From Streptomyces sp. ISL-100 (GTDB taxonomy: Bacteria; Actinomycetota; Actinomycetes; Streptomycetales; Streptomycetaceae): a stretch of DNA of 64,000 bases. The position numbers were made by a program, and so were the translations under genes. Below, one piece after another: positions 2,820 through 25,581 of the stretch. Position 1 is the first letter of the stretch. Each line of letters begins with the position of its first letter. The DNA is taken from positions 1 through 64,000 of the forward strand of contig NZ_JAGGOK010000049.1 in the NCBI RefSeq assembly GCF_018614615.1, in the 5' to 3' direction. The notes under the pieces are model-generated. The model was not told the origin of the DNA, did no database searches, and worked only from the letters and a program-made list of their open reading frames with translations.

Positions 2820-2894
2820 GCCTCCTTAGCTCAGTCCGGCCAGAGCAACGCACTTGTAATGCGTAGGTCGTCGGTTCGAATCCGACAGGGGGCT
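2820..2894 (+). tRNA. tRNA-Thr (anticodon UGU)
   Basis: A full cloverleaf can be folded: acceptor GCCTCCT (2820-2826) with AGGGGGC (2887-2893), D stem GCTC/GAGC, anticodon stem ACGCA/TGCGT with loop CTTGTAA (anticodon TGT at 2855-2857), and T stem GTCGG/CCGAC with loop TTCGAAT. CCA is not encoded. The 3' half from the anticodon loop onward is the attachment site of the element, so the gene is rebuilt by integration. Confidence 0.97.
2853..2893 (+). repeat. attL core (41 bp)
   Basis: It runs from the first base of the anticodon loop to the last acceptor-stem base of tRNA-Thr. It is identical to 25541-25581, and the bases just outside differ (A2852 versus C25540, T2894 versus C25582). Confidence 0.92.
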
Positions 2895-3207: not shown

Positions 3208-4638
3208 TTAATGGTAGATGTCCCGCGTGATCCGGGTGTCGCTGTGGCCGAGGGTGTCGGAGACGATTTTGACGTCGATGCCGGCGGCGAGCATGAGGGT
3301 GGCCGCGCCGTGGCGGAGGTCGTGCAGGCGGATCGGCGGAAGTCCGGAGGCGGAGACGAGCCGCTCGAAGAGGTCGGTGACCTTGCCCGGGTGGAGCCAC
3401 GAGCCGTCCTCCTGGGTGAAGACCAGACCGGTCTCGACCCATGCCGGTCCCCATTTCTCGCGGTCCGCGTCCTGCCGCTGACGGTGCTGCTTGAGTACCC
3501 CCACCGTGTCGTCGTCGAGTGCGACGACGCGGAAGCCGCTGTCGGTCTTCGGTTCGGACGTCTCGACGCCCCAGCCGTCCTGTATGAGCTGGGCGGAGAC
3601 GGTCAGCGAGTGGGTGTCGAGGTTCGTCTCCGACCACGGCTGCCCGCATGCCTCGCCCCGGCGCAGGCCGCGGAAGGCGATCAGGTGCCACATGGCGTAC
3701 AGCCGGTCCGTGGCCACGGAGTCGAGGAAGGCGCCCGTCTGCTCCGGCGTCCAGACCATGACGGGGGAGGGCTTCTCGCCGGTCTGACGCCACTTGGTGA
3801 CTCGCTCATCGGTCCAGACGAGGGCCTTCGGCTTGCGTACGGAGTCGATCTCGACGTGGGCGGCCGGGTTGAAGGTGATGATCTGCTGACCGATCGCGTC
3901 GTTCAGCGATGCCCGGAGGGTGGCCTTGACGTGCTGACGGGTGGCCGGGCCGGTGACCCGCCGGAAGGCCGGCATCGCGTCGATCGCGTCCTTCAGGGCC
4001 TTGCGGCGGGCGCGGTTCTCCGCCCCCTTCCACGGGATGGACGTGAGTTCGTCGACGGCTGCCCGGCGCTGGGCGTTCTGCTCCAGGATCTCGGCGTTGG
4101 CGTCCGCGATGGCCGTGAACATCTCGCTGAGGTGGCTGACGAGCAGCCGGTCGAGCCGCCGGCCGCCGATGTGCGGTTTGAGGTGCACGCGGACGTCGGT
4201 CTCGTAGCGGTTCAGGCCGGACTTGCGGATCCGCTTTCCGGCCAGCCAACGGTCGAGCCATTCGGCGACGGTCAGGCTTCCGATGAGGTCCTGGCCGGAG
4301 TTGAGCCGCCGCCGGGTCTCCTCGACCTCCGGCAGAGGCGCCTTCTCGCTGCTGACTTCCGCGAGCATGGCGGCGATCAGCTCCGTGCCCTCGCGGTCGT
4401 CGGCCTCGGCGAGGCCCAGGAGAGCGCGTACGTGGTCGAGGTCGGCCTGGGCTGCCTTGAGGCTGCTGTATCCGCCGCGGGCGAAGGAGCGCCGGCTGCC
4501 GTCCTCGCGGGAGGGCAGTTCCTGGCGTATGGAGTACGTGCAGTGGTTCCTGCTGTTGCGCTTGGGGCAGGAGGTGCCGAGTTCCTTGCCGGTCTTCGGG
4601 TCGCGGCAGGAGCAGCGGCGGTAGGTGGAGCCCTTCAA
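3208..4638 (-). CDS. Tyrosine site-specific integrase, C-terminally frameshifted
   Basis: A 476-residue phage-type integrase that would recombine the element's attP with attB in tRNA-Thr. The N-terminus has a Cys-rich segment (RRCSCRDPKTGKELGTSC). A SAM-like DNA-binding domain follows, then the catalytic domain with RGLRRGE (catalytic Arg), HDLRHGAATLML, LGHSD and DIYH (catalytic Tyr three codons from the end). It stops right after YH with TAA; the expected SVLPHVG helix is in another frame (3023-3207). The TTG start at 4638 follows GAGGAG, and the XRE gene's stop lies 5 bp upstream, so the two are coupled. All catalytic residues are present, but loss of the final helix may impair activity. 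Confidence 0.88.
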   Translation of the reverse strand: MKGSTYRRCSCRDPKTGKELGTSCPKRNSRNHCTYSIRQELPSREDGSRRSFARGGYSSLKAAQADLDHVRALLGLAEADDREGTELIAAMLAEVSSEKAPLPEVEETRRRLNSGQDLIGSLTVAEWLDRWLAGKRIRKSGLNRYETDVRVHLKPHIGGRRLDRLLVSHLSEMFTAIADANAEILEQNAQRRAAVDELTSIPWKGAENRARRKALKDAIDAMPAFRRVTGPATRQHVKATLRASLNDAIGQQIITFNPAAHVEIDSVRKPKALVWTDERVTKWRQTGEKPSPVMVWTPEQTGAFLDSVATDRLYAMWHLIAFRGLRRGEACGQPWSETNLDTHSLTVSAQLIQDGWGVETSEPKTDSGFRVVALDDDTVGVLKQHRQRQDADREKWGPAWVETGLVFTQEDGSWLHPGKVTDLFERLVSASGLPPIRLHDLRHGAATLMLAAGIDVKIVSDTLGHSDTRITRDIYH

Positions 4639-4643
4639 ATGTC

Positions 4644-5324
4644 CTACTCCTCGGTGGTGTCGGGGAAGTCCTCCGGCGCGTCGACGTCGGAGAGTTCGGG
4701 TGCGAGGTGCGGGGGTGTGCCGCCGTCTTCGCGGATGTCGGCGCGTGCGGTACGCAGTCCGTGCTTGGCGCGCGCGGCTTGTCTGGCGTAGTCCTCCTGG
4801 GCGAGCAGGGCCTCCGCACGGGTGGCGGGGTTGTTCGCGGTCCTGGCCTTCCATCGCTCGTACTCCTCGCCTCTGAGGGCGGTGAGCGCGGCGTGGTGGT
4901 GGTGGGCGTGCGCCCGGAAGTTGCGCAGCATCACGGACTCGGTGTCCAGGGCGTCGGGGATTTCGCCGGTGAACCACTGCATGGCGTCCCAGGTGGGCCG
5001 GGGGGCCTCAAGTGGTTGTTGCTGGACGTGGCCGACATACCCGACCGGGTAGATGAGGCAGACCGGGTGGGTGTCGAGGGCCATGGCCAGGACCATGACG
5101 TCGACGAGGGGCAGGGTGGAGCGGCGTCCGGACTCCATGTTCGCGATGACGTTGCGGGGGATCGGGTGGCCGAGGTCCGCACACCGGTCGGCCAGGTCCT
5201 GGGCGCTCATGCGCAGTTCCTTCCTCCGTCTCCGTACTTCGCCGGCCACGGTCGCCGTGACCTGGTCCTCCCACAGGGGGACGTCGTCCCCGTCTTCTCC
5301 ATGGTGAACATTGCGTTGTGTCAT
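4644..5324 (-). CDS. XRE-family helix-turn-helix regulator
   Basis: A 226-residue protein with an HTH domain at about residues 25-85 (VAGEVRRRRKELRMSAQDLADRCADLG, then VIANMESGRR) and a charged, His- and Ala-rich C-terminal region of unknown role. It is immediately upstream of the integrase and divergent from the excisionase-like gene, so it probably controls integration/excision or maintenance of the element. The ATG at 5324 lacks an obvious ribosome-binding site. Confidence 0.85.
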   Translation of the reverse strand: MTQRNVHHGEDGDDVPLWEDQVTATVAGEVRRRRKELRMSAQDLADRCADLGHPIPRNVIANMESGRRSTLPLVDVMVLAMALDTHPVCLIYPVGYVGHVQQQPLEAPRPTWDAMQWFTGEIPDALDTESVMLRNFRAHAHHHHAALTALRGEEYERWKARTANNPATRAEALLAQEDYARQAARAKHGLRTARADIREDGGTPPHLAPELSDVDAPEDFPDTTEE

Positions 5325-8539: not shown

Positions 8540-9283
8540 GTGACGTACGACCCGCACCATCCCGAGAGCGACCCGGCCGAACCGCAGCCATCGACGAAGC
8601 CGACGAAACCGACCACGCCACTGGAACGTCTGCGCCGGGCGTTCGGACGGGCGGCTCCTGGCGGAGCCAGTAGTACCCCGAGTCCGACTCATGGTCGGTC
8701 TTCGGGGATCTCCGCCCCGGGGGTGGCGGAGACGGCCCAGCGCCAGGGGGCGCCGGACCGGGAGGTCGGGGCCGAGGAAGGCCCCGACCCGGACACGCTT
8801 CACGCCGCCCAGCAAGCGATCCTCCGCCCGACGCGTACTGACGTCCCCGCCGTCGGCGAACTCCCTGTGCAGAGCGTCCAGCCAACGATCCGCCGGTTCA
8901 CCGGCGACGCGCGCCTTAAGCGCGTCGGCCCCTTGCGCTTCACCGCCGACGAGCGCACCAGCCTGCACGAGGCCGCAGCCGAGCACGGCTACAAAGGCGA
9001 ATCCGGTTTCGCCGCCGATGTCGTCCTCGCCTTCATCGACGGCCGCTTCACCGCGAACCTCCCCCTGTCCGAGGACCGCCGCCGCACCCACATGTTCCGA
9101 GCGCAGGTCCTGCGCGCCCTCAATCGCACTGGCGTCAACGTCAACCAGATCGCCCGCGCCCTCAACAGCGACTACACCCCGCCCGACATCCGCCAGCGCC
9201 TCGACGAACTCCACCGCCTGCTCACCCTGATCGCTGAGGCTCTGCGTCAGCCCACCGACCCGAGGGAGGACTTGCCCGCGTGA
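8540..9283 (+). CDS. MobC-like relaxosome accessory protein
   Basis: A 247-residue protein. Residues 1-110 are Pro/Ser/Thr-rich and poorly structured. The C-terminal half has features of MobC-type proteins: RFTADERTSLHEAAAEHGY, then RTGVNVNQIARALN, close to the conserved GxNxNQIARxLN motif. MobC proteins help the relaxase open oriT. The GTG start is at 8540. The stop overlaps the relaxase start by 4 nt (GTGA), indicating translational coupling. Three hairpins at 8653-8732 lie inside its low-complexity N-terminal part. Confidence 0.78.
   Translation: MTYDPHHPESDPAEPQPSTKPTKPTTPLERLRRAFGRAAPGGASSTPSPTHGRSSGISAPGVAETAQRQGAPDREVGAEEGPDPDTLHAAQQAILRPTRTDVPAVGELPVQSVQPTIRRFTGDARLKRVGPLRFTADERTSLHEAAAEHGYKGESGFAADVVLAFIDGRFTANLPLSEDRRRTHMFRAQVLRALNRTGVNVNQIARALNSDYTPPDIRQRLDELHRLLTLIAEALRQPTDPREDLPA
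8653..8732. other. Candidate oriT: three tandem hairpins
   Basis: GGCTCC-TGGC-GGAGCC (8653-8668), a longer interrupted stem CCCCGA..CCGAC/GTCGG..TCGGGG (8676-8707), and TCTCCGCC/GGCGGAGA with an 8-nt loop (8709-8732). Stacked inverted repeats just upstream of mobC/relaxase sequences are typical of origins of transfer. That they fall within a low-complexity coding stretch supports a DNA-level role, but no nic site can be assigned. Confidence 0.4.
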
Positions 9284-11004
9284 TCGCCGCCATCAAACCG
9301 GCCGGGTCCAACACCCGCGGTCTGCTCGCCTACCTTTACGGTCCCGGCCGGCACGACGAACACTTCGACCCGCACCTCGTCGCCGGCTTCGCCATGCTCG
9401 GCATGCCCGACCCCGGCCGTGACGAAAACGCCACCCTGACCGAACTCGGCCACTACCTGGACGAGCCCGTACGCCTACGCAATAACGAGTTCGGCAAGCC
9501 TGTCACCGAGTACGTCTGGCACTGCCCCGTCCGCGCAGCACCCGAAGACCGCTACCTCTCCGACACCGAGTGGGGCGAGATCGCCCAGCGCATCGTTCAG
9601 GCCGCTGGCATTGCCTCCGCACGCGATGATCTGGCCTGCCGGTGGATCGCCGTACGTCATGCCGACGACCACATCCACATCGTCGCGACCACCGTCCGCG
9701 AAGACGGCCGCCGCCCCAAGCTCCACGACAGCGGCATCCGCGTCGGCGACGAATGCCGGACGATCGAAAGGGACTACGGGCTGCGCCGCCTGAGGAAGGG
9801 CGACCGCACCGGCACCCGGCGCCCCACCCAGGCCGAGATGCACAAAGCCGATCGCCTCGGCTGGGAGCAGACCAGCCGAGAGTGGCTCCAGGACCGCATC
9901 CGCGCCGCCATCCCGCACGCCACCAGCGTCGAGGAACTCCTCGCCTACCTCGAAGCCGGCGACATCCTGGTCAAGCCCCGTCGCGGCCCCTCTGGAGACC
10001 TCCTCGGCTACGCCGTAGGCCGCCCCGATGACCTGAACAAGGACGGCGAGCAGATCTACCACCCCGGCGGGAAGATCGCCCCCGACCTGTCGCTGCCCAA
10101 GCTGAAGGTCCGCCTGGAGACCAGCGCACCGGAGGAACACCCCACCGCCCGGCGTAACCGATCTACCACCGCCTGGCATCAGGCCACCGACGCCCTCGAC
10201 ACCCTGCACACGGAAACCACCAACACGGACGCCGACGAAGACGCGCGGGCGCAGGCGCAGATCAGCGCCTTGGGCGAACTTATCGAAGCCACCGCCCAGA
10301 AAGCCCCCGCCGATATCCGAGCGCAACTGCAGGCGGCCAGCCGGGCATTCGCCCGTGCCCAGCGCTCTCAAATCCGAGCCGAAGACCGCGTCGCCCACGC
10401 TCTGCGGTCCGCCGCCCGCGACATCGTCAACACCGCCACTGGCCCTGACGGCAGCGCCCTAGTCGCCTTGACCGCCGCACTCGTCTGGGCCGTTGTCCTC
10501 GCCGGACAGTGGCACGATGCCAAGGGCCACGCTCACCAGGCCGACGCCGCCCGCGAAGCCGTCCAGCATCTTCAATCAGCAGCCGACACTGCGCTCGCCG
10601 CGACGCTCACCGAGCTGGCAGGGCGCCCCTTCAAGGAGGAGTTCCGTCGAACGCTGGCCAACGACGTGCACGCTGCGGTGCCCGAACACGCCGATCGGAT
10701 TCTGGCTGACCCTGGCTGGCCTGCACTTGCCACTGTCCTGGCCGACGCTGAAGCTGGCGGCCACAAACCCCACCAGCTCCTCAAGGAAGCCGCCGCCCGC
10801 CGTGAGCTCGGCACCGCCCACAGGCCCGCCCGTGTCCTGATCACCCGCATCCAGCACACCAGCCGCAATCCCGCACCCAACCGCCGCGCCGAAGCAGCCC
10901 GCCTACGGAGCACCACCGCGTCAGCCTTCGGCGTGCCGTCCCCCGGCACCCAGCCGCGCACGGCAATCGCTCCCAAGAGCCAGCCGAGCCGACCTCGCCG
11001 CTGA
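9280..11004 (+). CDS. MOBP-type relaxase
   Basis: A 574-residue relaxase/mobilization nuclease that would nick oriT and lead single-stranded DNA transfer. The HUH motif RHADDHIHIVAT (His127, His131, His133) binds the metal. The catalytic Tyr is probably one of those in the first 70 residues (LLAYLYGPG). After about residue 190 the protein is helical, with a hydrophobic segment at about 390-406 (ALVALTAALVWAVVLAG) that could anchor it to the membrane. The GTG start overlaps the mobC stop by 4 nt. A relaxase with MobC but no coupling protein suggests the element uses another element's transfer machinery. Confidence 0.88.
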   Translation: MIAAIKPAGSNTRGLLAYLYGPGRHDEHFDPHLVAGFAMLGMPDPGRDENATLTELGHYLDEPVRLRNNEFGKPVTEYVWHCPVRAAPEDRYLSDTEWGEIAQRIVQAAGIASARDDLACRWIAVRHADDHIHIVATTVREDGRRPKLHDSGIRVGDECRTIERDYGLRRLRKGDRTGTRRPTQAEMHKADRLGWEQTSREWLQDRIRAAIPHATSVEELLAYLEAGDILVKPRRGPSGDLLGYAVGRPDDLNKDGEQIYHPGGKIAPDLSLPKLKVRLETSAPEEHPTARRNRSTTAWHQATDALDTLHTETTNTDADEDARAQAQISALGELIEATAQKAPADIRAQLQAASRAFARAQRSQIRAEDRVAHALRSAARDIVNTATGPDGSALVALTAALVWAVVLAGQWHDAKGHAHQADAAREAVQHLQSAADTALAATLTELAGRPFKEEFRRTLANDVHAAVPEHADRILADPGWPALATVLADAEAGGHKPHQLLKEAAARRELGTAHRPARVLITRIQHTSRNPAPNRRAEAARLRSTTASAFGVPSPGTQPRTAIAPKSQPSRPRR

Positions 11005-11226: not shown

Positions 11227-11598
11227 TCATCCACGACTGAACATGCCGCCCCGCGCGCGATGCCTTCCGACACGGCGTCCGCCAGACTGCTCAGGCGTGG
11301 AAGCCGTGCTGACCGGGGCCGGACGAGCCGGTTCATCGTGAAGGAGAAGGGATTGCCAGACCTGCTCCTGCAAGACGCGGATGCACGGGCCGCAGGCGAA
11401 CATGGCTGCCTGGGCGCCAGCCACACTCACGGGGCCGATCCATAGAACACGGGTCCAACGCTGGCCGCAGTAGAGCCAGCAGAATCCGTCCGTCCACGTA
11501 TTGCCGTCGTCCGTGTCTGCCGCAGCGGGCAGACCGCCGCGCGCGAACTCGGCGATGCCGGGTATGACCCGAGGTGTCACGGCCAGTTCTATAAACAC
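11227..11598 (-). CDS. Small protein with paired cysteines
   Basis: A 123-residue protein, last gene of the five-gene block A operon, 16 bp after the CYTH gene. The core TDGFCWLYCGQ ... MFACGPCIRVL has two Cys pairs (CxxxC and CxxC) spaced as in a zinc ribbon; the last 35 residues are Arg/Ser/Gly-rich. Its role is unknown. GTG 11598 is preceded by GAGG at 8 nt; a second GTG seven codons later is possible. The coding assignment rests on the conserved-looking core and operon position. Confidence 0.55.
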   Translation of the reverse strand: MFIELAVTPRVIPGIAEFARGGLPAAADTDDGNTWTDGFCWLYCGQRWTRVLWIGPVSVAGAQAAMFACGPCIRVLQEQVWQSLLLHDEPARPAPVSTASTPEQSGGRRVGRHRARGGMFSRG

Positions 11599-11614
11599 AG
11601 CTCGGTCCTCAAGA

Positions 11615-12208
11615 TCACTCGCTCGGGACAGCTGCCCTGGCCGCAGCCTGCTTGTCGGCGTCGGCGAAGAGGAGGGTGGGTTCGGCCAGGATGTCCCTGC
11701 CGGACTCGCTCTTGTAGATCTCATCGACGCTGCCGAAGCGTGCTTCGGAGTAGTCGAGGTCGAGCAGGGCGGCTGCCTGGCGGACCGATGCCTCGTCGGG
11801 GCCCTCGATCTCGACGAAGGTGGGGAGGTCCGGCCAGGTGTCGAAGTCGAAGTCGAAGGCGACTTCGCCGAGGCGCCATTCCTCGCGGTAGTTCTCCTGG
11901 TACCGGACCTCGCGCATGCCGAGGCTGCGCAGGATCTCGGCCATGGCGTGCAGGTCCGTGACCTCGGTCTCGATCTCGGTGGTGCCGTTGATCGTGGTGG
12001 CGTCGGTGACCTGCTTGAGCGTGAGCGTCGATCGGGTGCCCTCGTCCCGAAGCCGCACCCAGGCCCCTCCTTCGAGTGCGTCGTTCTCGAAGATCTTGCG
12101 GGTCAGGAGGGTGCGGGGGAACGCTTGGGTGGCGCCCAAGGCGGTCAGCTGGGTCTGGAGGCCGGCGACGTCGATGGCGAGAAACTTGGCCTCGTACTCG
12201 TGCTTCAC
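11615..12208 (-). CDS. CYTH-domain (triphosphate tunnel) protein
   Basis: A 197-residue CYTH-superfamily protein, the fold of class IV adenylate cyclase and thiamine/inorganic triphosphatases. The defining ExExK motif is at residues 4-8 (EYEAK). Further tunnel residues appear as WVRLRDEG, TLTLKQV, IETEV, a Tyr-Arg-Glu run and FVEIEG. The family acts on the triphosphate of nucleotides or other organic triphosphates with divalent metal. It lies 16 bp behind the methyltransferase gene in an operon with a nucleotide kinase and a radical SAM enzyme, so a triphosphorylated product of that pathway is a reasonable substrate. Adenylate cyclase activity cannot be excluded. Confidence 0.85.
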   Translation of the reverse strand: MKHEYEAKFLAIDVAGLQTQLTALGATQAFPRTLLTRKIFENDALEGGAWVRLRDEGTRSTLTLKQVTDATTINGTTEIETEVTDLHAMAEILRSLGMREVRYQENYREEWRLGEVAFDFDFDTWPDLPTFVEIEGPDEASVRQAAALLDLDYSEARFGSVDEIYKSESGRDILAEPTLLFADADKQAAARAAVPSE

Positions 12209-12224
12209 GGGTTCTTCCTTCGTA

Positions 12225-12872
12225 CTAGGAGGGGGTGCGGGCCGCGAGAAGCAGGCCCATCCGGTGGGTGTGGTCCTGGAGCTGGCCGATGTGCGCTCGC
12301 TCGGCGAACTCGTTCGTGCGCAGGGTCAGCAGGACATTCCAGTCGCCGATGAAGTGGCGCCTGAGCTTCTCGGGGGACGTGTAGTGATCGATCAGGTGCT
12401 GGCGCTGGGTGACAGGCATCATGAACTCCGCCCCGTACAGGCCGCTCTGGCCGACAGAGGACTGCATGCGGGTGACGAAATCAGCGAGCGGGCGATGATG
12501 GTTGGCACTGTAATGCCAGGAGCAGCTCGTCCAGATGGCATCGCAGGGCGTGCCCGAAGGCTCCCATTGGAGGTAGTCCTCCTCCACGATCTGCACGCGG
12601 TCGTGGAGCGATTCGAGCTTGAGGCGGTCGACGAGGCCCATGGCGTGGGCCCGGTTGTCACCCGGGAGGATGACCTCGCCTCCGTGCAGGGCGAGGGGGT
12701 CGTGCTCTACGGCGATCACCTGGTAGCCGGCGGCGGCCAGAGGCAGGACGAACTTTCCGTCGCTCGCCCCCACAACCATGACCGTGGCGTCAGGAGCGGC
12801 ACGCTCCTTCAGCGCGGCGAGGAACTGGGGGAAGAACGTGAGGGTGTGCTCCCACAGGCTCTGCGTCTGCAC
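12225..12872 (-). CDS. Class I SAM-dependent methyltransferase-like protein
   Basis: A 215-residue Rossmann-fold protein. Motif I is VMVVGASDGKFVLPLAAAGY (about residues 28-47), followed by the acidic end of beta-2 (VIAVEHD) and a motif IV region DAIWTSCSWHYS. G-A-S-D-G-K replaces the commoner GxGxG but fits the nucleotide loop. The substrate is unknown. GTG 12872 follows AAGGAG at 9 nt. The start lies 83 bp inside the kinase gene, an unusually long overlap. Confidence 0.78.
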   Translation of the reverse strand: MQTQSLWEHTLTFFPQFLAALKERAAPDATVMVVGASDGKFVLPLAAAGYQVIAVEHDPLALHGGEVILPGDNRAHAMGLVDRLKLESLHDRVQIVEEDYLQWEPSGTPCDAIWTSCSWHYSANHHRPLADFVTRMQSSVGQSGLYGAEFMMPVTQRQHLIDHYTSPEKLRRHFIGDWNVLLTLRTNEFAERAHIGQLQDHTHRMGLLLAARTPS

Positions 12873-13431
12873 GGTAGTGGGCTCCTTGCGTGTCGATGGA
12901 CAAGATCGTCTGGAGGACCTCGTCGGGGTCCAGATGCGTGGTGTCCACGTGGTGCATCGGGAACTGGGCATAGACGCCGGTAATGCGGTCTGCCACCGCT
13001 TCCGCCAGAACGTCCCAGCGGGAGGCCGGCTTGATGCGCTCAGCGAGTCGACGCCCGCGCTCGTCCTTGCCGCACGTCAGTTGGTACGTCACGGGTTGGG
13101 GCAGGCTTGGCGGGAGGCTGATGCCGAGGCTGGAGCCGAGTGCCTGGTGGTTGGCCAGGCAGCGGGCGAAGTAGCTCTCCACGACCACTGGGGTGCCCTC
13201 GGTCAGGAGGCGCTGGATCTCATCGGTCACGGTGAACAGCGCGGATAGGTAGAAGCACATCCGGGCCTCGGTGTTTCCGCGCCGGTCCACCTCACGGCGC
13301 AGAGGCTGGTAGAAGAGCGGCACGGTCGGGACCAGGACGGCCCGGCGGGCCGCTGCCAGCATCGGGGCGATGGTCGACTTTCCGGTGCCGCGGAGCCCTT
13401 CGAGGCTCTCGAACAGCGGACTGTCAGACAC
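12790..13431 (-). CDS. Thymidylate kinase-like P-loop kinase
   Basis: A 213-residue protein whose Walker A GLRGTGKS (residues 12-19) and overall layout resemble dTMP/deoxynucleoside kinases (FESLEGLRGTGKST; later VVVESYFAR, like the DR(Y/F) loop; then a lid-like KDERGRRLAERI). It should phosphorylate a nucleotide or nucleoside analogue. The GTG start at 13431 overlaps the end of the radical SAM gene by 8 bp. The last 35 residues are low-complexity and overlap the methyltransferase gene in another frame, so the functional fold probably ends near LQTILSID. It is unlikely to be the housekeeping dTMP kinase because of its sequence and position. Confidence 0.75.
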   Translation of the reverse strand: MSDSPLFESLEGLRGTGKSTIAPMLAAARRAVLVPTVPLFYQPLRREVDRRGNTEARMCFYLSALFTVTDEIQRLLTEGTPVVVESYFARCLANHQALGSSLGISLPPSLPQPVTYQLTCGKDERGRRLAERIKPASRWDVLAEAVADRITGVYAQFPMHHVDTTHLDPDEVLQTILSIDTQGAHYRADAEPVGAHPHVLPPVPRRAEGACRS

Positions 13432-14326
13432 GGCCGTACACCACGTCCGGCACCGCGAGCGTGAGCTCGTCGGTGGGCGACGGCCGGTGGTCGATGTGGC
13501 TGGCGAGCTTGTCGTACCAGAAGGCGTGCGAGTCCTTACCGACAGCCTTGCAGGACATGGTGAGCGCGCCGCGGGGGTCGGCCTCGATCCGCTCGATCTC
13601 CACGGGGCGTCCGGCAGGAATGCAGGCAACCGGGGCACCATGCTCGGACAGGTCCTCGTCGACGATCACCTCGATCTCCAGCTCGGCCGCATCCAGCCGG
13701 CCTCGAAGCCGGGTGTAGGCCGCAGGGTCGGTGATCAGGAGCTCGGGGTGATCGGCCGCGTTGCCGACCGGTCGGAGGCAGTGCAGTTTCAGCTGCTCCA
13801 CCCCGTAGCCCTGAAGTGTGCGAGCGAGTGGCAGCACCTCCTCGATGTTGCGTGAGGTGACTGTCATGGTCGCCCCGGCGCGGACACCAAGTCGCTGGGC
13901 GATTTCGAGGGCGCTCAACGCACTGCGGTAGCTGCCGAACTTGCGGATGTGGTCATTGGTCGAACCGATGCCCTCCAGCGATACCCGGAGCAAGTCCAGG
14001 TCGGGGGCGATCTCGGTCAGCCGGCGCTCGATCCGGTAGCCGTTGGTGCAGATCTCGACCCGCATCCGCAGATCCCGCTTGGCGTACTGGACGACCTGGG
14101 TGAGGTCTCTGTAGACGAACGGTTCGCCGCCCAGCAGGGTGACAGCCTCAGTGCCGTACTCGTCGCGCATGAGCGTGAGGAGGTTGATCGCCTCGTCTGC
14201 GGTGAAGGCGTCGGCGTGCTGGAGTCGCTTGCCGTGGAAGCAGTGCAGACATTCGAAGTTGCAGCGGTACAGCAGCTGCAGGTACAGCATCCGGATCCTG
14301 CGGATCCCGGTGACTTCCCTGATCAT
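13424..14326 (-). CDS. Radical SAM enzyme
   Basis: A 300-residue radical SAM protein. Cys22, Cys26 and Cys29 (CNFECLHC) bind the 4Fe-4S cluster. GGEPF (66-70), ICTNGYRI and LRVSLEG mark successive strands of the partial TIM barrel. Two further cysteines near the C-terminus (VACIPAG, MSCKAVG) may bind an auxiliary site, but there is no clear SPASM domain. The ATG follows GGGAG at 6 nt. It is the first gene of the operon kinase-methyltransferase-CYTH-small protein. Nearest families are MoaA/PqqE-like; the substrate is unknown, and a nucleotide is suggested only by the neighbours. Confidence 0.88.
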   Translation of the reverse strand: MIREVTGIRRIRMLYLQLLYRCNFECLHCFHGKRLQHADAFTADEAINLLTLMRDEYGTEAVTLLGGEPFVYRDLTQVVQYAKRDLRMRVEICTNGYRIERRLTEIAPDLDLLRVSLEGIGSTNDHIRKFGSYRSALSALEIAQRLGVRAGATMTVTSRNIEEVLPLARTLQGYGVEQLKLHCLRPVGNAADHPELLITDPAAYTRLRGRLDAAELEIEVIVDEDLSEHGAPVACIPAGRPVEIERIEADPRGALTMSCKAVGKDSHAFWYDKLASHIDHRPSPTDELTLAVPDVVYGRV

Positions 14327-14433
14327 GCGGGTCTCCCTCGGGCGTTTGCCTGGTGGGAGACTTGATATTGGCGGGATAGGTACGGACCCCGTCACCGCGT
14401 ATCGGGACGCTCCGAGGACGTCCTGGGACGTTT

Positions 14434-15126
14434 TCAGGAAGCCGCGAATGCCTCCAGGATCCCGAGCACACGAGTAGTGTCCATCAGGTCGGGCAGCACC
14501 CTCTGAGCACCGGCAGCGGCCAGGTCTTCAGCGCTGTGGACGCCGGAGGCGACCGCGATGATCTCTGAGCCCGTGGCGATCGCGGCCTCAACGTCCCTGG
14601 GCGTATCGCCCACGAGTACGACGGGCACGTCGTTGCGCGCGCCTCGGAGTCGCTGGGCACGCTCACGGGCGACAGCGACCAAATCCGGCCGCTGAAGAGC
14701 GTCAGCCCCGTAGGCACCAACTTGCAGATCGAGCAGGGAGTCAAGGCCGAACGCCGATACCTTCACCCGAGCGTTGGCCGCAATATTGCCCGTGAGCACC
14801 GAGGACACCCAGGCATTGCGTACGGAGGCGTTCTTCAAAATTTCCCGCACGCCGGGCAAGGCCGTGCCGCGTCGGCTGAGCTCGGAAAGGCGTGCTTCCC
14901 CTGCGGCGGTGAGAGCCTCCTCGACAGTGGCCCAGTCCGGCTCGGCCACACCGTTTCGGTGGAACATGTCGCGCATGATCAGACGGTCCGTACGGCCTTC
15001 CGTCCGCGCCGGCCCCATGGGCCCTCTCCCCGACAGTGCCGTGAAGGCAGCGGCGTAAATCTCCTTGCTGACCCCGGCATTCTCGATAAGCGTGTGGTCG
15101 ATGTCCCACAGGACGATGAGCTCCAT
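14434..15126 (-). CDS. HAD-family phosphatase
   Basis: A 230-residue HAD hydrolase, phosphoglycolate phosphatase/PgmB-like, with a helical cap. The nucleophile motif DIDHT is at residues 8-12, the conserved Thr/Ser in SSVLTGN, and the acidic motif IV in VLVGDTPRDVEAA. It would dephosphorylate a small phosphate ester. Start is ATG at 15126; TACGCT is 6 nt upstream and there is no Shine-Dalgarno, so the mRNA may be leaderless. It is divergent from the HTH gene, with 107 bp separating it from the radical SAM operon downstream. Confidence 0.85.
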   Translation of the reverse strand: MELIVLWDIDHTLIENAGVSKEIYAAAFTALSGRGPMGPARTEGRTDRLIMRDMFHRNGVAEPDWATVEEALTAAGEARLSELSRRGTALPGVREILKNASVRNAWVSSVLTGNIAANARVKVSAFGLDSLLDLQVGAYGADALQRPDLVAVARERAQRLRGARNDVPVVLVGDTPRDVEAAIATGSEIIAVASGVHSAEDLAAAGAQRVLPDLMDTTRVLGILEAFAAS

Positions 15127-15187
15127 ACGCCCAGCGTAAGCACCGTGGCCGTGCCGTCGACCTCCCGCAGAACGTCCCGTAACGTCC

Positions 15188-15223
15188 TTGCCGCTCCCGG
15201 CCCCTTCAGCTTGTATGGCGCCT
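15188..15223 (+). promoter_or_regulatory. Sigma-70-type promoter, leaderless mRNA
   Basis: TTGCCG (15188-15193), a 17-bp spacer, then TTGTAT (15211-15216), 7 nt before the GTG at 15224. The arrangement places the transcription start at or next to the start codon. Confidence 0.65.
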
Positions 15224-15997
15224 GTGAACGAGCGACTGCACTCCGTACTCGCCCAGCGCGGCATCCCGCCCGAATCCCTCGCCGAAGTCTGCGAGGTGGA
15301 CCCCAAAACGGTTAGCCGATGGCTCGGCGGACGTGTTCCCCACGCCCGCCATCGCTTCCGCGTCGCACGGCACTTGCGGGTGGAGGAGCTGTTCCTCTGG
15401 CCGGCACCGGTACGCGGTGCCCAGCAGCAAGCCGCCGGGTCAGAGCAGGAGCTCGTCACGACCTATCAGAACCGGGCGAGCGTCCCACGGGACACGTGGC
15501 TGTCGCTGCTCGAAGGCGCGCAGGAGGAGATCGGCGTCCTAGTCTTCTCCGGCACCTTCTTCGCCCAGTCGAACCCCCACGTCGCCAAGATGCTTGCCGA
15601 GCGAGCATCGGACGGGGTGCGAGTGCGGCTCTGCTTCGGCGACTCGAACGGCCAGGCAGCAGCCATTCGAGGCCGAGAAGAAGGCATCGGCGACACCCTC
15701 GGCGCCAAGATCCGCGCCTCCCTCACCTACTACCGGCCTTTACTGTCCGAGGCAGGCTGCGAAGTGAGACTGCACGACACCACGCTCTACACGTCGATGT
15801 TCCGCTACGACAACAACCTCTTGGTGAACCCGCACGTCTGGGGCCAGCCGGCCAGCGCCAACCCCCTCCTGCATCTCAGGAGAGCTGGCACCACAGGTTG
15901 GTTCGACAACTACGCTCAGAGTTTCGAAGCTGTCTGGGCCACCGCACGGCCCTGGACACCAGACCAGGAGGGGCCCTCGTCACATGGGCAGGACTGA
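15224..15997 (+). CDS. HTH protein with PLD-like sensor domain
   Basis: A 257-residue protein. Residues 1-60 form an XRE-like HTH (LAEVCEVDPKTVSRWLGGRVP). The rest (about 90-245) resembles the degenerate phospholipase D-like domain of Streptomyces HTH proteins often paired with Nudix genes: IGVLVFSGTFF, VRVRLCFGD, then LHDTTLYTSMFRYDNNLLVNPH. A full HxK catalytic pair is not evident, so it is more likely a ligand sensor than an enzyme. The GTG start is chosen because of the leaderless promoter; ATG 15215 would place the -10 inside the gene. Its stop overlaps the Nudix start by 14 bp. Confidence 0.75.
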   Translation: MNERLHSVLAQRGIPPESLAEVCEVDPKTVSRWLGGRVPHARHRFRVARHLRVEELFLWPAPVRGAQQQAAGSEQELVTTYQNRASVPRDTWLSLLEGAQEEIGVLVFSGTFFAQSNPHVAKMLAERASDGVRVRLCFGDSNGQAAAIRGREEGIGDTLGAKIRASLTYYRPLLSEAGCEVRLHDTTLYTSMFRYDNNLLVNPHVWGQPASANPLLHLRRAGTTGWFDNYAQSFEAVWATARPWTPDQEGPSSHGQD

Positions 15998-16451
15998 GTA
16001 CTACAACGACCCCAAGGCCCCCAAGGCGAACACGCTCATTCCCGCCAACAACCTGCTCGTCGTCGACGACAACGGCGCCATACTGCTCCAACGCCGCCGG
16101 GACACCGGCCAGTGGGCCCTTCCGGGCGGCGCGCAGGACATCGGCGAGACGGCGGCCCAGTGCGCCGTGCGTGAATGCCTGGAAGAGACCGGCATCATCG
16201 CCGAGGTCACCGGATTCCTGGGGGTCTACACCAACCCCAACCACATCGTGGCCTACACCGACGGCGAGATCCGCCAGCAGTACGAGAACACCTACATCGG
16301 CAGGCCCGTAGGCGGTGAACCCACCATCAACGACGAAGCCGACGGCGTCCGCTACGTCCAGCCGAACGACCTGGACCAGTACGACATCCATCCCAGCATG
16401 CGCCAACAGATCGGCGACTACCTCGCCGGCACGTACCCCTACCTGGGCTGA
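15984..16451 (+). CDS. Nudix hydrolase
   Basis: A 155-residue protein with a complete Nudix box: G-x5-E-x7-REC-x-EETG (about residues 47-69), which binds metal and hydrolyses nucleoside diphosphate-linked compounds. It is translationally coupled to the HTH sensor gene. Its 3' end overlaps the convergent HD gene by 13 bp. Its position next to kinase, HAD and CYTH genes suggests clean-up or processing of a nucleotide product. Confidence 0.88.
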   Translation: MGRTEYYNDPKAPKANTLIPANNLLVVDDNGAILLQRRRDTGQWALPGGAQDIGETAAQCAVRECLEETGIIAEVTGFLGVYTNPNHIVAYTDGEIRQQYENTYIGRPVGGEPTINDEADGVRYVQPNDLDQYDIHPSMRQQIGDYLAGTYPYLG

Positions 16452-17002
16452 GAGGCCAGGGCCGACTCCACCCGCTTCACAGCGGCCAGGATCTCCGGCG
16501 ACGCTCGACGGATGAAGCGTCCCACCAGACTGTCGGCCCCGTACCGGCTGGTGATCTCGGCCAACCGAGCGTCCACCGAAGTGATCGCTCCACTGGGGGT
16601 GGTCGTCATGTCGCAGTACACAAGGGCGTCCACTAGGCGCTGGTCGTCGAGGAGCGGAAACTCCGCTTCCAAGGTCTCGCGCAATCCCCGCTCTTCGGCT
16701 TCCAGTAGCGCAAACGAGTGGTTGGCCACCAGCCGGACCAGCAGTTCGTCCGCAGCATGGGTGTCACGAAGGAAGCGAGCCCCGTCCAACGGATGAAAGC
16801 CAGTGACGGCCAGGCGCGGGGCGTAACCCACGTCGTGCAAAACGGCCGCAGAGAGCAGGAGTTCCGCCTTCCCTCCCATCGTCCCGGCCAGTCTCTCTGC
16901 GCACTGCGCGACACCTTGCGAGTGCGCCCAACGACGAGGAAGCGGCTCAGCCAATTCTTCCTCGGCGACTGCGCATGCCCACGTAGCCATCGATTCATTC
17001 AT
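16439..17002 (-). CDS. HD-domain phosphohydrolase
   Basis: A 187-residue HD-superfamily protein. His in RRWAHSQGV and the HD pair in AAVLHDVGYAP form the metal site, and a later YCDMTTTPSG motif is typical of small HD hydrolases acting on nucleotides or phosphate esters. ATG 17002 is used; ATG 16990 is possible and neither has a clear ribosome-binding site. It is convergent with the Nudix gene. Confidence 0.8.
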   Translation of the reverse strand: MNESMATWACAVAEEELAEPLPRRWAHSQGVAQCAERLAGTMGGKAELLLSAAVLHDVGYAPRLAVTGFHPLDGARFLRDTHAADELLVRLVANHSFALLEAEERGLRETLEAEFPLLDDQRLVDALVYCDMTTTPSGAITSVDARLAEITSRYGADSLVGRFIRRASPEILAAVKRVESALASQPR

Positions 17003-17191
17003 AGTCGGTACGTGCCCGGGCGCAGCGTTGCTCAGTCTCAAGCCAACAGGACCGCTTGGGAGCCCGGGCGGATGTCGTCGTGGAGGGCTTCGGCGGCTGC
17101 TGCAACTGGGCAGGTCTGGTCCATACAGGGCCTGGCTGTCACTCTTCATTTCCGCCAACTAACAGCCTGCCCCTTCTGGCAGAGTAGCGGG

Positions 17192-18978: not shown

Positions 18979-21162
18979 ATGGCCCGGAAACCCAAGATCA
19001 ATCAGCGCGCGGTTGAGAGGCACATCAAGGAGATCGCCAAAGGCTACGAGCGCGCAGCCAGGCGGAATCCGATCCGCGTGCCTATCCAGACGGGCGCGAC
19101 TGCCGAAGGAGTGTCCTTGGCTGACCGCGACAGTATCGAGAGCAGCCCGATTTTGGCCCGGCTCCTTATGTGGCTTGACGCCCAGGCGCGGCAGCATCCG
19201 TCGCAGTACGTCGACGTCACCCTGTTCGTTGAGGAGTACCAGCTGGAGGACGAGAATCCGACTGTCCTCGCTCTCCAGTTGGAGCGGCGTGGTCTGGTAG
19301 ACATCGCCCGCAACCTCGCGGGCACCCCCGATGTCCACCTCACTGACGAAGGCCGCCTTGCCGTACACCAGTTGCGGAACCTGCAGAAGGACCGTGCCGC
19401 CAGGCTCCGTTACACCATGGACGCTTTCCTGCGATGGCTGTTCGATACTGCTGGCGACCAAGCGCCCGTCGATCCTGCTTTGTTCCTGGTGACACCAGGT
19501 TCGTCCTTTGCCGGAGCGGCAGTTTCCCCGACCGATCTGCATCAGGCGCTCGCCTACTTGGCTGAGCACAGCTTTATGGAACGTATCGGCACCGACCCTG
19601 CCGCGGTCACCATCACGCCCGAAGGCGTCGACTGCATTCTGGCTGGAGAGAGTGTCCAAGATCGGACCAGGTCCGCACGCTCCAGCACTAAGTACAGCGA
19701 CACCCTGGCCAGCGTGCGAAACGTCATCAGTGGTCAGCAGCAGAATGCCGCCGATGCCACGCAGGACCGGTTCACCGCCTCCCGTGAGGTGCCGCCCCCT
19801 GCTGCGCAGAGAAACCTTGAGCCAGTGCGCAGCCAGGCGACTGGCGATCCCAAGGCGTACCGTCGCGACCCGTATCGCCTGCCCGGCAGCAATCAGGCAG
19901 ACGTATTCAGGGCCACGCACAAGGCGACCGGCACCACCGTGGCGCTTAAGCAGCTGCACGTGAAGAGTGTCGTGGGTATGAGGGCCGCCCGCATGAAGCG
20001 GGAGATCGAAGCAGGGAACGCTCTGGCCGGGCACCTGCATGCCATGCCCATCTTGGATCATGCCGCCAACTACACCTGGTTCGTCATGCCCTGGGCTGAC
20101 AGCACAGCCGAGGAGCACAGGGAGGCCCTCAGAGATTCCCAGCAGCTGCGGGTTCTCGTCGATGCCCTCGCCTCGGTGCTGGCCAAGGCGCACAGGCTCG
20201 GCTGGATCCATCGTGACATCAAACCGCCGAACATCCTCCTGCTGGAGGGCCAATGGGTTGTTGCTGACTGGGGTGCCGTCCGGCGACCACCTGGCCAGAC
20301 GACCAAGGTCGGTCGCACCGCGACTGGCATCGGCTCTGCAGGTTTCTCCGCACCCGAGTTGTTCACAAACCCGGACCAGCGCCCTCAACCCTCCGGCGAC
20401 ATCTACAGCATCGGCAGGGTGATCGCCTGGGCGTTGACCGGTGACATGCCACTGCCTAACAAACAGCTACTTCCCGCACCCGGCCCCTGGCGCAACATTG
20501 TCAGAGCTGCTACCCAGGAGGACCCTTCCCGCCGGCCCCAGGCCATCAGCGACCTGATAGGTCTGATCGAGCGCGAGTTCGCCGAGATTCCCGTTGAGCC
20601 CCTGGAGCGAGCCACCAGGCTGCTTGAGCAAGCCAACATGGGAGACACCGATGCTGCTGACGCATTCCTGGCGCTGCTGACCGACCACGCGGACGACTAC
20701 GAGCTCTATATCGGGTTGCTCACCAAATTCACCGCACGCAAAGCTGGAACAGCACTTGCCCACAACCTTCCCCAAGCACACAGCGTGCTCAACGCCCTGA
20801 CCGAGCACGTAGATGGGGACGGCACGCGGTGGGTCCAGTTCGCGGAAGCTTCCGTCGTGACGATCTGGCTCCACGACATCGCCGCTCATGCGGCCGCCAA
20901 GCGGGAATGGGACCTTCTCGAGGAGGCCATGCAGGCCATGTGCACTTGGGACGGCAGCTGGGACCAATGGAACGCACGAGACAAGATCAGTCCGTGGCTC
21001 GGATCTCTCCGGGGAGATGCCGCAGCCACCGCCGCGGCAGTCTTGCGCGGCCATCTCGACTCCGCAGCCCACTTCAGCCACCTCGCTGAAGACCGCACGT
21101 GCGACCCCCGCATCCGTCAGGCAGTGCGCCAGGAGGGCGACGGGGAAACGAACAACGCCTGA
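18979..21162 (+). CDS. Ser/Thr protein kinase with winged-helix-like N-terminus
   Basis: A 727-residue soluble kinase. Residues 1-230 look like two winged-helix units (ILARLLMWLDAQAR.., LERRGLVDIARN..LTDEGRLAVHQL; then a second LAYLAEHSFMERIG..ITPEGVDCIL). The kinase domain spans about 295-530: VALK Lys324, HRDIKPPN with Asp413, and DWG Asp430 in place of DFG. Catalytic residues are intact. The C-terminal 190 residues are helical without clear homology. There is no transmembrane segment, unlike PknB-type receptors. The ATG follows AGGAGG at 6 nt. It precedes the Mod/Res pair by 217 bp on the same strand, suggesting a defence role, as with other defence-island kinases. Confidence 0.85.
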   Translation: MARKPKINQRAVERHIKEIAKGYERAARRNPIRVPIQTGATAEGVSLADRDSIESSPILARLLMWLDAQARQHPSQYVDVTLFVEEYQLEDENPTVLALQLERRGLVDIARNLAGTPDVHLTDEGRLAVHQLRNLQKDRAARLRYTMDAFLRWLFDTAGDQAPVDPALFLVTPGSSFAGAAVSPTDLHQALAYLAEHSFMERIGTDPAAVTITPEGVDCILAGESVQDRTRSARSSTKYSDTLASVRNVISGQQQNAADATQDRFTASREVPPPAAQRNLEPVRSQATGDPKAYRRDPYRLPGSNQADVFRATHKATGTTVALKQLHVKSVVGMRAARMKREIEAGNALAGHLHAMPILDHAANYTWFVMPWADSTAEEHREALRDSQQLRVLVDALASVLAKAHRLGWIHRDIKPPNILLLEGQWVVADWGAVRRPPGQTTKVGRTATGIGSAGFSAPELFTNPDQRPQPSGDIYSIGRVIAWALTGDMPLPNKQLLPAPGPWRNIVRAATQEDPSRRPQAISDLIGLIEREFAEIPVEPLERATRLLEQANMGDTDAADAFLALLTDHADDYELYIGLLTKFTARKAGTALAHNLPQAHSVLNALTEHVDGDGTRWVQFAEASVVTIWLHDIAAHAAAKREWDLLEEAMQAMCTWDGSWDQWNARDKISPWLGSLRGDAAATAAAVLRGHLDSAAHFSHLAEDRTCDPRIRQAVRQEGDGETNNA

Positions 21163-21379
21163 GCTCAGTGGATCTCTGGTATGGAGGCGAAGCCGGTACC
21201 GAGGCTGGCTGGGCGGTTGTGAGTGGGTCCACGCTCCCCGTGCCGGATGATGCCTGTTCGCAGCACCGTGCGACCCGTAAACCGCCTGTCGCTGTCAGCG
21301 GCGGCCGGTACCTTTGCAGTGAGTGTTGTGGTCTGCGTCTGAGTCGCGGACCGATCGAGGTGCATGGGAGTGGTCGCGG

Positions 21380-25392: not shown

Positions 25393-25540
25393 TCAACCTT
25401 GTTGCGTGAGCGCTGCGTGAGCGGACTGGGTGGCACCGGGGTGGACGAGGCATCACGCTGATCAAGGTCGCAAGCCTCTGATCAGCGGAAACGGGATCCG
25501 GTAGCACCTTCCGGCATTATCCGTCATGATCTTGCAGGCC

Positions 25541-25581
25541 CTTGTAATGCGTAGGTCGTCGGTTCGAATCCGACAGGGGGC
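25541..25581 (+). repeat. attR core (41 bp), tRNA-Thr 3' fragment
   Basis: A perfect copy of 2853-2893. Upstream bases cannot form the tRNA 5' half, so this is not a second tRNA gene but the displaced original 3' end. Confidence 0.92.

What the first reader, a model, noticed from the sequence alone, without database searches (positions are those of the whole stretch)
11227..14326. Five-gene radical SAM / nucleotide kinase / methyltransferase / CYTH / Cys-pair operon
The genes are packed with an 8-bp overlap, an 83-bp overlap and two 16-bp gaps, all on the minus strand of a mobile element, so they very likely work together. Family knowledge: CYTH proteins act on triphosphates, dTMP-kinase-like P-loop proteins phosphorylate nucleotides, and radical SAM enzymes make difficult C-H changes. 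Inference: the operon makes or matures a modified nucleotide or other phosphorylated small molecule (antiphage nucleotide analogue, signal or metabolite). The arrangement recalls prokaryotic viperins next to nucleotide kinases, but this radical SAM protein is not a viperin. I know of no described system with this set.
Basis: partly seen in the sequence, partly recalled or inferred. Interest (0 to 1): 0.82.

Follow-up and report, generated by a model that had tools for sequence, protein, structure and literature searches.

The report
Mobile-element cassette for an unknown nucleotide
A set of enzymes that probably makes an unusual phosphorylated small molecule, most likely a modified nucleotide, travels as one unit on bacterial mobile elements, wired by a shared DNA switch to a known but unexplained control module of such elements; what the molecule does is not known.

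Summary
The five genes are real and at the stated coordinates, but they are the payload half of a larger cassette: HD hydrolase, NUDIX, XRE regulator, usually HAD, then radical SAM, P-loop kinase, class I methyltransferase and CYTH. The Cys-pair gene is a frequent, dispensable neighbour. Of 56 orthologous loci (Streptomyces, Kitasatospora, Sphaerimonospora, Nocardia) 51 hold all seven core genes, in one order in 51 of 51. In 150 Streptomyces genomes radical SAM, kinase and full methyltransferase orthologues occur only together (11 copies, 10 genomes). The window copy lies on a 22.7-kb element bounded by 44-bp repeats at a tRNA-Thr. HD-NUDIX-XRE corresponds to the 'mdp-nud-xre' cluster reported on actinomycete integrative elements. 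A palindrome, AACGTCCCRGGACGTC, precedes the radical SAM gene in 54 of 55 copies and also precedes a different payload in 3 of 3 loci, so payloads look swappable under one regulator. The radical SAM protein is not a viperin (55.8 bits, cut-off 180). Most likely reading: synthesis of a modified nucleotide with hydrolases as antidote, for phage defence or element exclusion. Unit: strong. Nucleotide product: moderate. Defence role: unproven.

The parts
2850..2893 (+). attachment repeat at the 3' end of tRNA-Thr(TGT) (tRNA 2820-2895); left end of the element
   Evidence: 44-nt direct repeat, 43 of 44 identical to 25538-25581; tRNA
3208..4977 (-). tyrosine integrase of the element
   Evidence: Phage_integrase 60.5 bits
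8540..9283 (+). MobC-like mobilisation protein
   Evidence: MobC 28.0 bits, cut-off 23.2
9280..11004 (+). MobA/VirD2-like relaxase
   Evidence: Relaxase 32.4 bits, cut-off 24.6
11227..11598 (-). Cys-pair protein, optional neighbour (four Cys invariant in 37 aligned copies)
11615..12208 (-). CYTH (triphosphate tunnel) protein
   Evidence: CYTH 41.3 bits; conserved charged residues
12225..12872 (-). class I methyltransferase-like protein
   Evidence: predicted fold; no Pfam hit
12790..13431 (-). P-loop kinase, distantly thymidylate-kinase-like
   Evidence: P-loop conserved
13424..14326 (-). radical SAM enzyme, CX3CX2C, no conserved auxiliary-cluster Cys set
   Evidence: fold
14417..14432 (-). 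palindromic operator AACGTCCCRGGACGTC before the radical SAM gene
   Evidence: 54 of 55 copies within two mismatches, 47 exact; shuffles none
14434..15126 (-). HAD-family hydrolase
   Evidence: HAD 40.6 bits; 49 of 56 loci
15171..15190 (-). second operator, direct repeat GGACGTT-NN-GGGACGTT, between XRE and HAD
   Evidence: 46 of 48 copies within two mismatches, 37 exact
15188..15997 (+). XRE-type regulator with a weak DUF5919 C-terminal match (start more likely at 15215 or 15224)
   Evidence: DUF5919 20.4 bits, below the cut-off 23.5; 53 of 56 loci; N-terminal helix-turn-helix read from the conserved sequence
15984..16451 (+). NUDIX hydrolase
   Evidence: NUDIX 71.9 bits; box residues invariant in 52 of 52 copies
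16439..17158 (-). HD-domain phosphohydrolase (start probably near 17002, judged from relatives' lengths)
   Evidence: HD 39.2 bits; motif invariant in 46 of 46 copies
25538..25581 (+). attachment repeat, right end of the element

Best explanation
A mobile cassette with two halves. Control half: XRE regulator, NUDIX, HD and usually HAD, a version of the mdp-nud-xre module of actinomycete integrative elements. Payload half: radical SAM, kinase, methyltransferase and CYTH, expressed from a promoter carrying a palindromic operator that, I infer, the XRE protein binds. Inferred chemistry: the radical SAM enzyme makes a difficult C-H or C-C change on a nucleotide or nucleotide-sugar, the kinase phosphorylates the product, the methyltransferase caps it, CYTH acts on the triphosphate, and NUDIX, HD and HAD clear or recycle it so that the element's own cell is spared. 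Inferred purpose: the modified nucleotide hinders phages or competing elements from copying or transcribing DNA. Shown: the unit, its mobile setting, the shared operator, intact catalytic signatures. Inferred: XRE binding, substrate, product, order of steps, purpose.
For: Unit: seven core genes in one order in 51 of 51 complete loci of 56; rSAM, kinase and full methyltransferase orthologues at the same 11 places in 150 genomes, XRE beside 11 of 11 and NUDIX beside 10 of 11; methyltransferase-CYTH fusion; purifying selection. Switch; same palindrome before another payload, 3 of 3; XRE-NUDIX pairs elsewhere carry a site of this kind at the XRE start in 7 of 16 loci. Mobility: att repeats, integrase, relaxase; relaxase or a tRNA gene within 2.5 kb past CYTH in 33 of 56 loci. 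Nucleotide theme: five phosphate-acting families; rSAM fold among BlsE, viperin, MoaA and DesII, but also SkfB and SuiB; kinase relatives in 8 of 10 weak-match loci sit with a MoaA-like radical SAM gene; methyltransferase relatives sit with Ham1 and LOG-type genes in 3 of 3 loci. Antidote reading: intact lone CYTH in 5 of 150 genomes, no lone rSAM, kinase or full methyltransferase orthologue.
Against: No biochemical or phage data. The closest folds include the peptide maturases SkfB and SuiB, tied with or above viperin. Defence-library hits are not specific: pVip 78 bits here against 36-58 bits for three other radical SAM proteins of the same genome. XRE-NUDIX occurs far more widely than the payload (96 and 94 of 150 genomes at E 1e-20), so NUDIX and HD need not act on the payload's product. 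One of 11 copies (G066) lacks a NUDIX match and has a stop in XRE. Restriction genes nearby were counted without a background rate. Five lone CYTH genes are few, and two of them show no methyltransferase remnant.
Confidence: 0.42

Rival explanations
1. Secondary metabolite or signal: the payload makes a nucleoside-type antibiotic or hormone that benefits the host or times element transfer, without direct antiphage action; XRE senses it.
For: Nearest named solved relative by sequence is BlsE of blasticidin S biosynthesis (E 9.5e-15; profile 1.5e-15); rSAM fold near BlsE Z 22.2; methyltransferase relatives lie among biosynthesis-like genes.
Against: No transporter, NRPS or PKS gene is constant in the cassette (gene map; only nine families recur in most loci); presence is patchy and on mobile elements.
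Confidence: 0.25
2. Conjugal immunity or exclusion: the whole cassette serves the element, with NUDIX acting as in Pif of pSAM2, and the payload supplies a signal or a substrate for it rather than an antiviral.
For: HD-NUDIX-XRE is known on integrative elements and Pif is a NUDIX protein that blocks redundant transfer (PMC3218068 passages); XRE-NUDIX-HD lies beside GntR and FtsK-like genes on a Streptomyces plasmid; one operator joins payload and module.
Against: Relation of this NUDIX protein to Pif was not tested; most XRE-NUDIX places lack the payload (against 87).
Confidence: 0.2
3. Peptide or protein modification: the radical SAM enzyme matures a peptide, as SkfB and SuiB do.
For: SkfB ranks first in fold comparison (Z 23.4) and SuiB is tied with BlsE and viperin.
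Against: No conserved auxiliary-cluster Cys set as in SPASM maturases (the comparison with SPASM is recalled); no recurring short peptide gene was seen in the printed intergenic regions (read by eye only, no dedicated search); four or more phosphate-acting partners.
Confidence: 0.07
4. RNA or DNA end processing: CYTH as a 5' triphosphatase, the kinase and methyltransferase as end modifiers.
For: CYTH superfamily includes RNA triphosphatases, and kinase-methyltransferase pairs occur in RNA repair (recalled).
Against: CYTH matches cyaB and the triphosphatase Saci_0718; Pfam shows no ligase or nucleic-acid-binding domain in the nine proteins scanned other than the regulator.
Confidence: 0.06

Closest known systems
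mdp-nud-xre cluster of actinomycete integrative elements (Ghinet et al. 2011, PMC3218068, passages read)
   Same: HD hydrolase, NUDIX hydrolase and XRE regulator together on an integrative element.
   Different: That report names three genes; here HAD and a four-gene payload are attached through a shared operator. Sequence identity to the genes of that report was not tested.
Prokaryotic viperins with nucleotide kinases (Bernheim et al. 2021; not read, seen through PMC12926258 passages)
   Same: Small radical SAM enzyme next to a P-loop nucleotide-kinase-like gene; one main radical SAM cluster motif; related fold.
   Different: 55.8 bits against the viperin cut-off of 180; methyltransferase, CYTH, NUDIX, HD, HAD and XRE added; Cys and GGEP aside, the viperin-specific residues were not compared.
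BlsE, cytosylglucuronate decarboxylase of blasticidin S biosynthesis
   Same: Best named sequence match in the PDB and similar fold (Z 22.2).
   Different: 51.2 bits against the BlsE model cut-off of 400; no other blasticidin gene was looked for or seen.
Pif of pSAM2 (conjugal immunity; Possoz et al. 2003, not read, seen through passages)
   Same: NUDIX protein on an integrative Streptomyces element.
   Different: Sequence relation not tested; immunity is ascribed to one gene.

Membership tests
Prokaryotic viperin | Radical SAM core with CX3CX2C | tested here: met
   Radical_SAM 71 bits; Cys 22, 26, 29 in 54, 54 and 55 of 55 copies
Prokaryotic viperin | Curated viperin model NF038283 reached | tested here: not met
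   55.8 bits, cut-off 180, match to residues 18-126 only
Prokaryotic viperin | Makes ddh-nucleotides | not testable with these tools
   needs enzyme assay
BlsE-type cytosylglucuronate decarboxylase | Curated model TIGR04466 reached | tested here: not met
   51.2 bits, cut-off 400
MoaA | Curated MoaA models reached | tested here: not met
   63.9, 59.5 and 55.2 bits against 325.25, 284.05 and 231
mdp-nud-xre cluster | HD, NUDIX and XRE genes adjacent | tested here: met
   window and at least 51 of 56 loci
mdp-nud-xre cluster | Carried by an integrative element | tested here: met
   att repeats, integrase, relaxase in the window; not shown for every locus
mdp-nud-xre cluster | Sequence orthology to the reported genes | not tested
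   gene content compared only
Pif conjugal-immunity factor | NUDIX domain on an integrative element | tested here: met
   NUDIX 71.9 bits; element
Pif conjugal-immunity factor | Blocks redundant transfer | not testable with these tools
   needs mating assay; sequence relation to Pif not tested either
Known anti-phage system | Specific match of the cassette proteins in the PADLOC library | tested here: inconclusive
   rSAM to pVip 78.1 bits (controls 36-58), kinase to PDC-M51B 70.3 bits (other kinases 52-60), methyltransferase to mad2 28.9, NUDIX to PDC-S07 39.2, XRE 14.6-15.1 bits; none for CYTH, Cys, HAD, HD; the library gives no curated cut-off

The most novel reading that the evidence does not exclude
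Actinomycete mobile elements carry an interchangeable small-molecule weapon-and-antidote platform: one sensor-regulator with its hydrolases (XRE, NUDIX, HD, HAD) drives, through a single operator, different biosynthetic payloads (radical SAM-kinase-methyltransferase-CYTH; or a CX2CX2C protein, in two of three loci with a phosphoketolase-like gene), each making a different modified nucleotide or sugar phosphate against phages or rival elements, while CYTH, kept alone after payload loss, acts as resistance.
Probability: 0.27. Interest if true: 0.88.

Novelty: new variant of a known kind. Interest (0 to 1): 0.63.

Why it matters
If true, it would give a function to the mdp-nud-xre cluster of actinomycete integrative elements, for which the passages read name no demonstrated role, and show that mobile elements exchange chemical payloads under one switch. 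It would widen radical-SAM-made nucleotide defence beyond viperins. The shared palindrome makes the idea directly testable: it names a candidate regulator, its targets and a way to find further payloads.

Tried and rejected
Viperin, BlsE and MoaA membership: rejected by curated cut-offs. Defence-library hits as evidence of defence: set aside after controls. Phage copies: viral contigs gave no relative for kinase, CYTH or rSAM; the phage collection gave four partial rSAM matches, none covering 80% of the query, and one XRE match at 33.6%. Plasmids: no kinase match; 103 records match rSAM, all under 60% identity. The distant rSAM loci L063-L084 (22, 26-31% identity) carry no other cassette gene by tblastn and were dropped before the count of 56. 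Phylum search (396 genomes): besides the own orthologue only kinase matches of 20-50 bits. Lone CYTH in G079 and G090 has no methyltransferase remnant, so a decay history is indicated for only 3 of 5.

Literature, ten searches: payload terms gave no paper; PDC-M51 and DUF5919 none; viperin with kinase, Streptomyces and NUDIX terms none; viperin papers, 7 listed; nucleotide-centric terms, 5 listed, seen as listing only; one search gave one paper; pSAM2 with NUDIX gave two. Passages read: PMC12926258, PMC3218068, PMC9513070. Possoz 2003 and Bernheim 2021 were not read. The library holds only open-licence papers, so 'not found in print' means not found in these searches.

Weak points of method: gene calls outside the cassette come from my own GC-position scorer, which misses and mis-extends genes (for example the CYTH of L122 at first). 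Operator shuffles keep base composition only. The correlations are not corrected for shared ancestry. The restriction-gene neighbourhood has no background control. The pattern was exact, so 7 of 16 is a lower bound, and those 16 loci were picked by me from the higher-scoring rows. An earlier count gave dN/dS of lone CYTH as 0.05-0.26 and 'all nine' at 0.01-0.38; the calls show 0.05-0.22 to the nearest copy and up to 0.50 for the Cys gene. Entry 1 gives the distant loci as 27-31%; one search shows 26-31%.
Full report
Observation. The five minus-strand genes are present as described, with the stated overlaps and gaps. The element around them has clear ends: a 44-nt repeat, 43 of 44 identical, lies at 2850-2893 (end of tRNA-Thr) and 25538-25581. 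Between them lie a tyrosine integrase, a MobC-like protein and a MobA/VirD2-like relaxase, a type III restriction pair and a protein-kinase-like gene.

A larger unit. One scan of genome contigs gave 78 loci; 56 (L007-L062) have an orthologous radical SAM gene (66-94% identity) and 22 are distant (26-31%) and were dropped. In the 56: rSAM 56, kinase 56, methyltransferase 55, CYTH 55, XRE 53, NUDIX 53, HD 52, HAD 49, Cys-pair 39; all seven core genes (HD, NUDIX, XRE, rSAM, kinase, methyltransferase, CYTH) in 51, in the same order in 51 of 51; all nine in 37. Some absences are contig ends (L051 for methyltransferase and CYTH, L048 and L053 for the HD side); L058 and L059 have shortened rSAM matches and no control half. 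HAD is missing from all five Nocardia loci. In L047 methyltransferase and CYTH form one frame. Pairwise identities of the parts correlate (Spearman with rSAM: XRE 0.85, methyltransferase 0.78, HAD 0.77, NUDIX 0.75, kinase 0.73, CYTH 0.72, HD 0.61, Cys 0.58), and dN/dS of the window copy against up to seven loci stays below 0.4 for every gene except the Cys gene, up to 0.50.

Presence pattern. In the same 150 Streptomyces genomes: rSAM orthologues 11 copies in 10 genomes; strong kinase matches (over 350 bits) at the same 11 places (ten further matches have 27-80 bits); full methyltransferase (over 400 bits) at the same 11 (besides, five relatives at 88-135 bits and three truncated copies). XRE lies beside 11 of 11 (one with a stop) and NUDIX beside 10 of 11. 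Strong CYTH (over 365 bits): these 11 and five more, G005, G056, G057, G079, G090; three of the five follow a methyltransferase missing its 5' part. The five lone CYTH genes branch among the Streptomyces-side cassette copies and show dN/dS of 0.05-0.22 to the nearest cassette copy, up to 0.36 among the three nearest. Lone CYTH without any lone rSAM, kinase or full methyltransferase orthologue fits a protective role, but five cases cannot exclude directional decay. The Cys-pair gene lies beside 6 of the 11 copies and beside two lone CYTH genes, and also elsewhere.

Switch. AACGTCCCRGGACGTC lies 83-95 bp before rSAM, within two mismatches, in 54 of 55 copies (window included; 47 exact; L058 fails with seven mismatches); CAAGGACGTT-NN-GGGACG lies between XRE and HAD in 46 of 48 (37 exact; L043 and L047 fail); mononucleotide shuffles gave none for either. 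The own genome holds one exact copy of the 15-bp core ACGTCCCRGGACGTC, at this promoter, and nine one-mismatch matches (two of them the two strands of one place) against three for the reversed control. XRE, NUDIX, HD and HAD also occur without this payload: in L130-L132 the same palindrome follows HAD (3 of 3) and leads into a protein of about 364 aa with CVGCAFC (3 of 3) and, in L130 and L132 but not L131, a phosphoketolase-like gene. That protein has no clear solved relative and its class is unknown. Of 16 further XRE-NUDIX loci that I picked, 7 carry an exact repeat of this kind, each beside the XRE start. That XRE binds these sites is inference.

Known part. Ghinet et al. 2011 (PMC3218068, passages) report a three-gene cluster mdp-nud-xre (HD, NUDIX, XRE) shared by four Frankia elements and by Sco5349, pMEA100 and pSE211, and describe the pSAM2 NUDIX protein Pif as a conjugal-immunity factor of unknown mechanism. 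An 18.5-kb Streptomyces plasmid record shows XRE-NUDIX-HD beside GntR and FtsK-like genes. So the control half is of a known kind; the payload half was not found in the searches listed under Tried and rejected.

Chemistry. The radical SAM protein keeps CX3CX2C and GGEP; of its other Cys, C93 and C259 are invariant, C235 is in 53 of 55 and C183 in 30 of 55, so no usual auxiliary-cluster set is evident (what such a set needs is recalled). Its model (pLDDT 79.9) matches SkfB Z 23.4, BlsE 22.2, SuiB 21.6, viperins 19.3-21.5, PqqE 21.0, MoaA 19.2, DesII 18.7; rows within 1 are tied, so the fold does not choose between nucleotide and peptide. The methyltransferase model (82.6) is class I, near 2p8j and TehB, with many rows close in Z. 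Charged residues expected of a CYTH tunnel are conserved (two of 55 copies have T for K8), and NUDIX, HD and HAD signatures are nearly invariant (residue roles recalled). Relatives of single parts recur beside other radical SAM genes: kinase relatives with a MoaA-like radical SAM gene, a 166-aa protein and an STM4013-family hydrolase in 8 of the 10 weak-match loci, 7 of them also with NUDIX; CYTH relatives with another MoaA-like radical SAM gene in L123-L125 and L128. Methyltransferase relatives of about 130 bits lie with Ham1, LOG-type and YqcI genes in 3 of 3 loci. Ham1 and LOG families act on nucleotides (recalled). Together these point to a phosphorylated, nucleotide-like product; none proves it.

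Defence. For: mobile cargo, patchy presence (10 of 150 genomes), restriction genes in the window and recurring near other copies (type II methylase cluster in 8 of 56 loci, Vsr in 6, type I methylase in 5; one representative of each scanned), and likeness to viperin-kinase pairs. Against: no specific defence-library match (78 bits against 36-58 for other radical SAM proteins), no background rate for restriction genes, no phage data. Element exclusion or a secreted metabolite remain open.

Verdict. A real, conserved, mobile biosynthetic cassette tied by a shared operator to a known, unexplained element module. The interest lies in the switchable payload, and the operator makes it testable.

Noticed in passing
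L130-L132: HAD-XRE-NUDIX-HD module with the same palindrome before a protein carrying CVGCAFC; phosphoketolase-like gene next to it in L130 and L132, not in L131.
   Followed up: partly
L088, L090-L096: A second Streptomyces cluster: MoaA-like radical SAM, thymidylate-kinase-like kinase, 166-aa protein and STM4013-family hydrolase in 8 of 8 loci, NUDIX in 7 of 8. One copy lies in the window's own genome (L088).
   Followed up: partly
L123-L125, L128: CYTH relatives next to another MoaA-like radical SAM gene; L124 also has a relaxase-like gene just beside it (by sequence start).
   Followed up: partly
L138-L140: Methyltransferase relatives in a cluster with Ham1, LOG-type and YqcI/YcgG genes and, in L140, a tetrapyrrole-methylase-family gene.
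   Followed up: partly
window 18979-25392: Other cargo of the same element: protein-kinase-like gene (PD-T4-6-like, 92.9 bits) and a type III restriction-modification pair.
   Followed up: no
L126:6627-7814: A CYTH relative next to a 395-aa protein without an NCBIfam match; by eye it recalls aminoacyl-tRNA synthetase fragments.
   Followed up: no
L003:1228-3288: A calcineurin-like phosphoesterase fused to a radical SAM domain elsewhere in the window's own genome.
   Followed up: no
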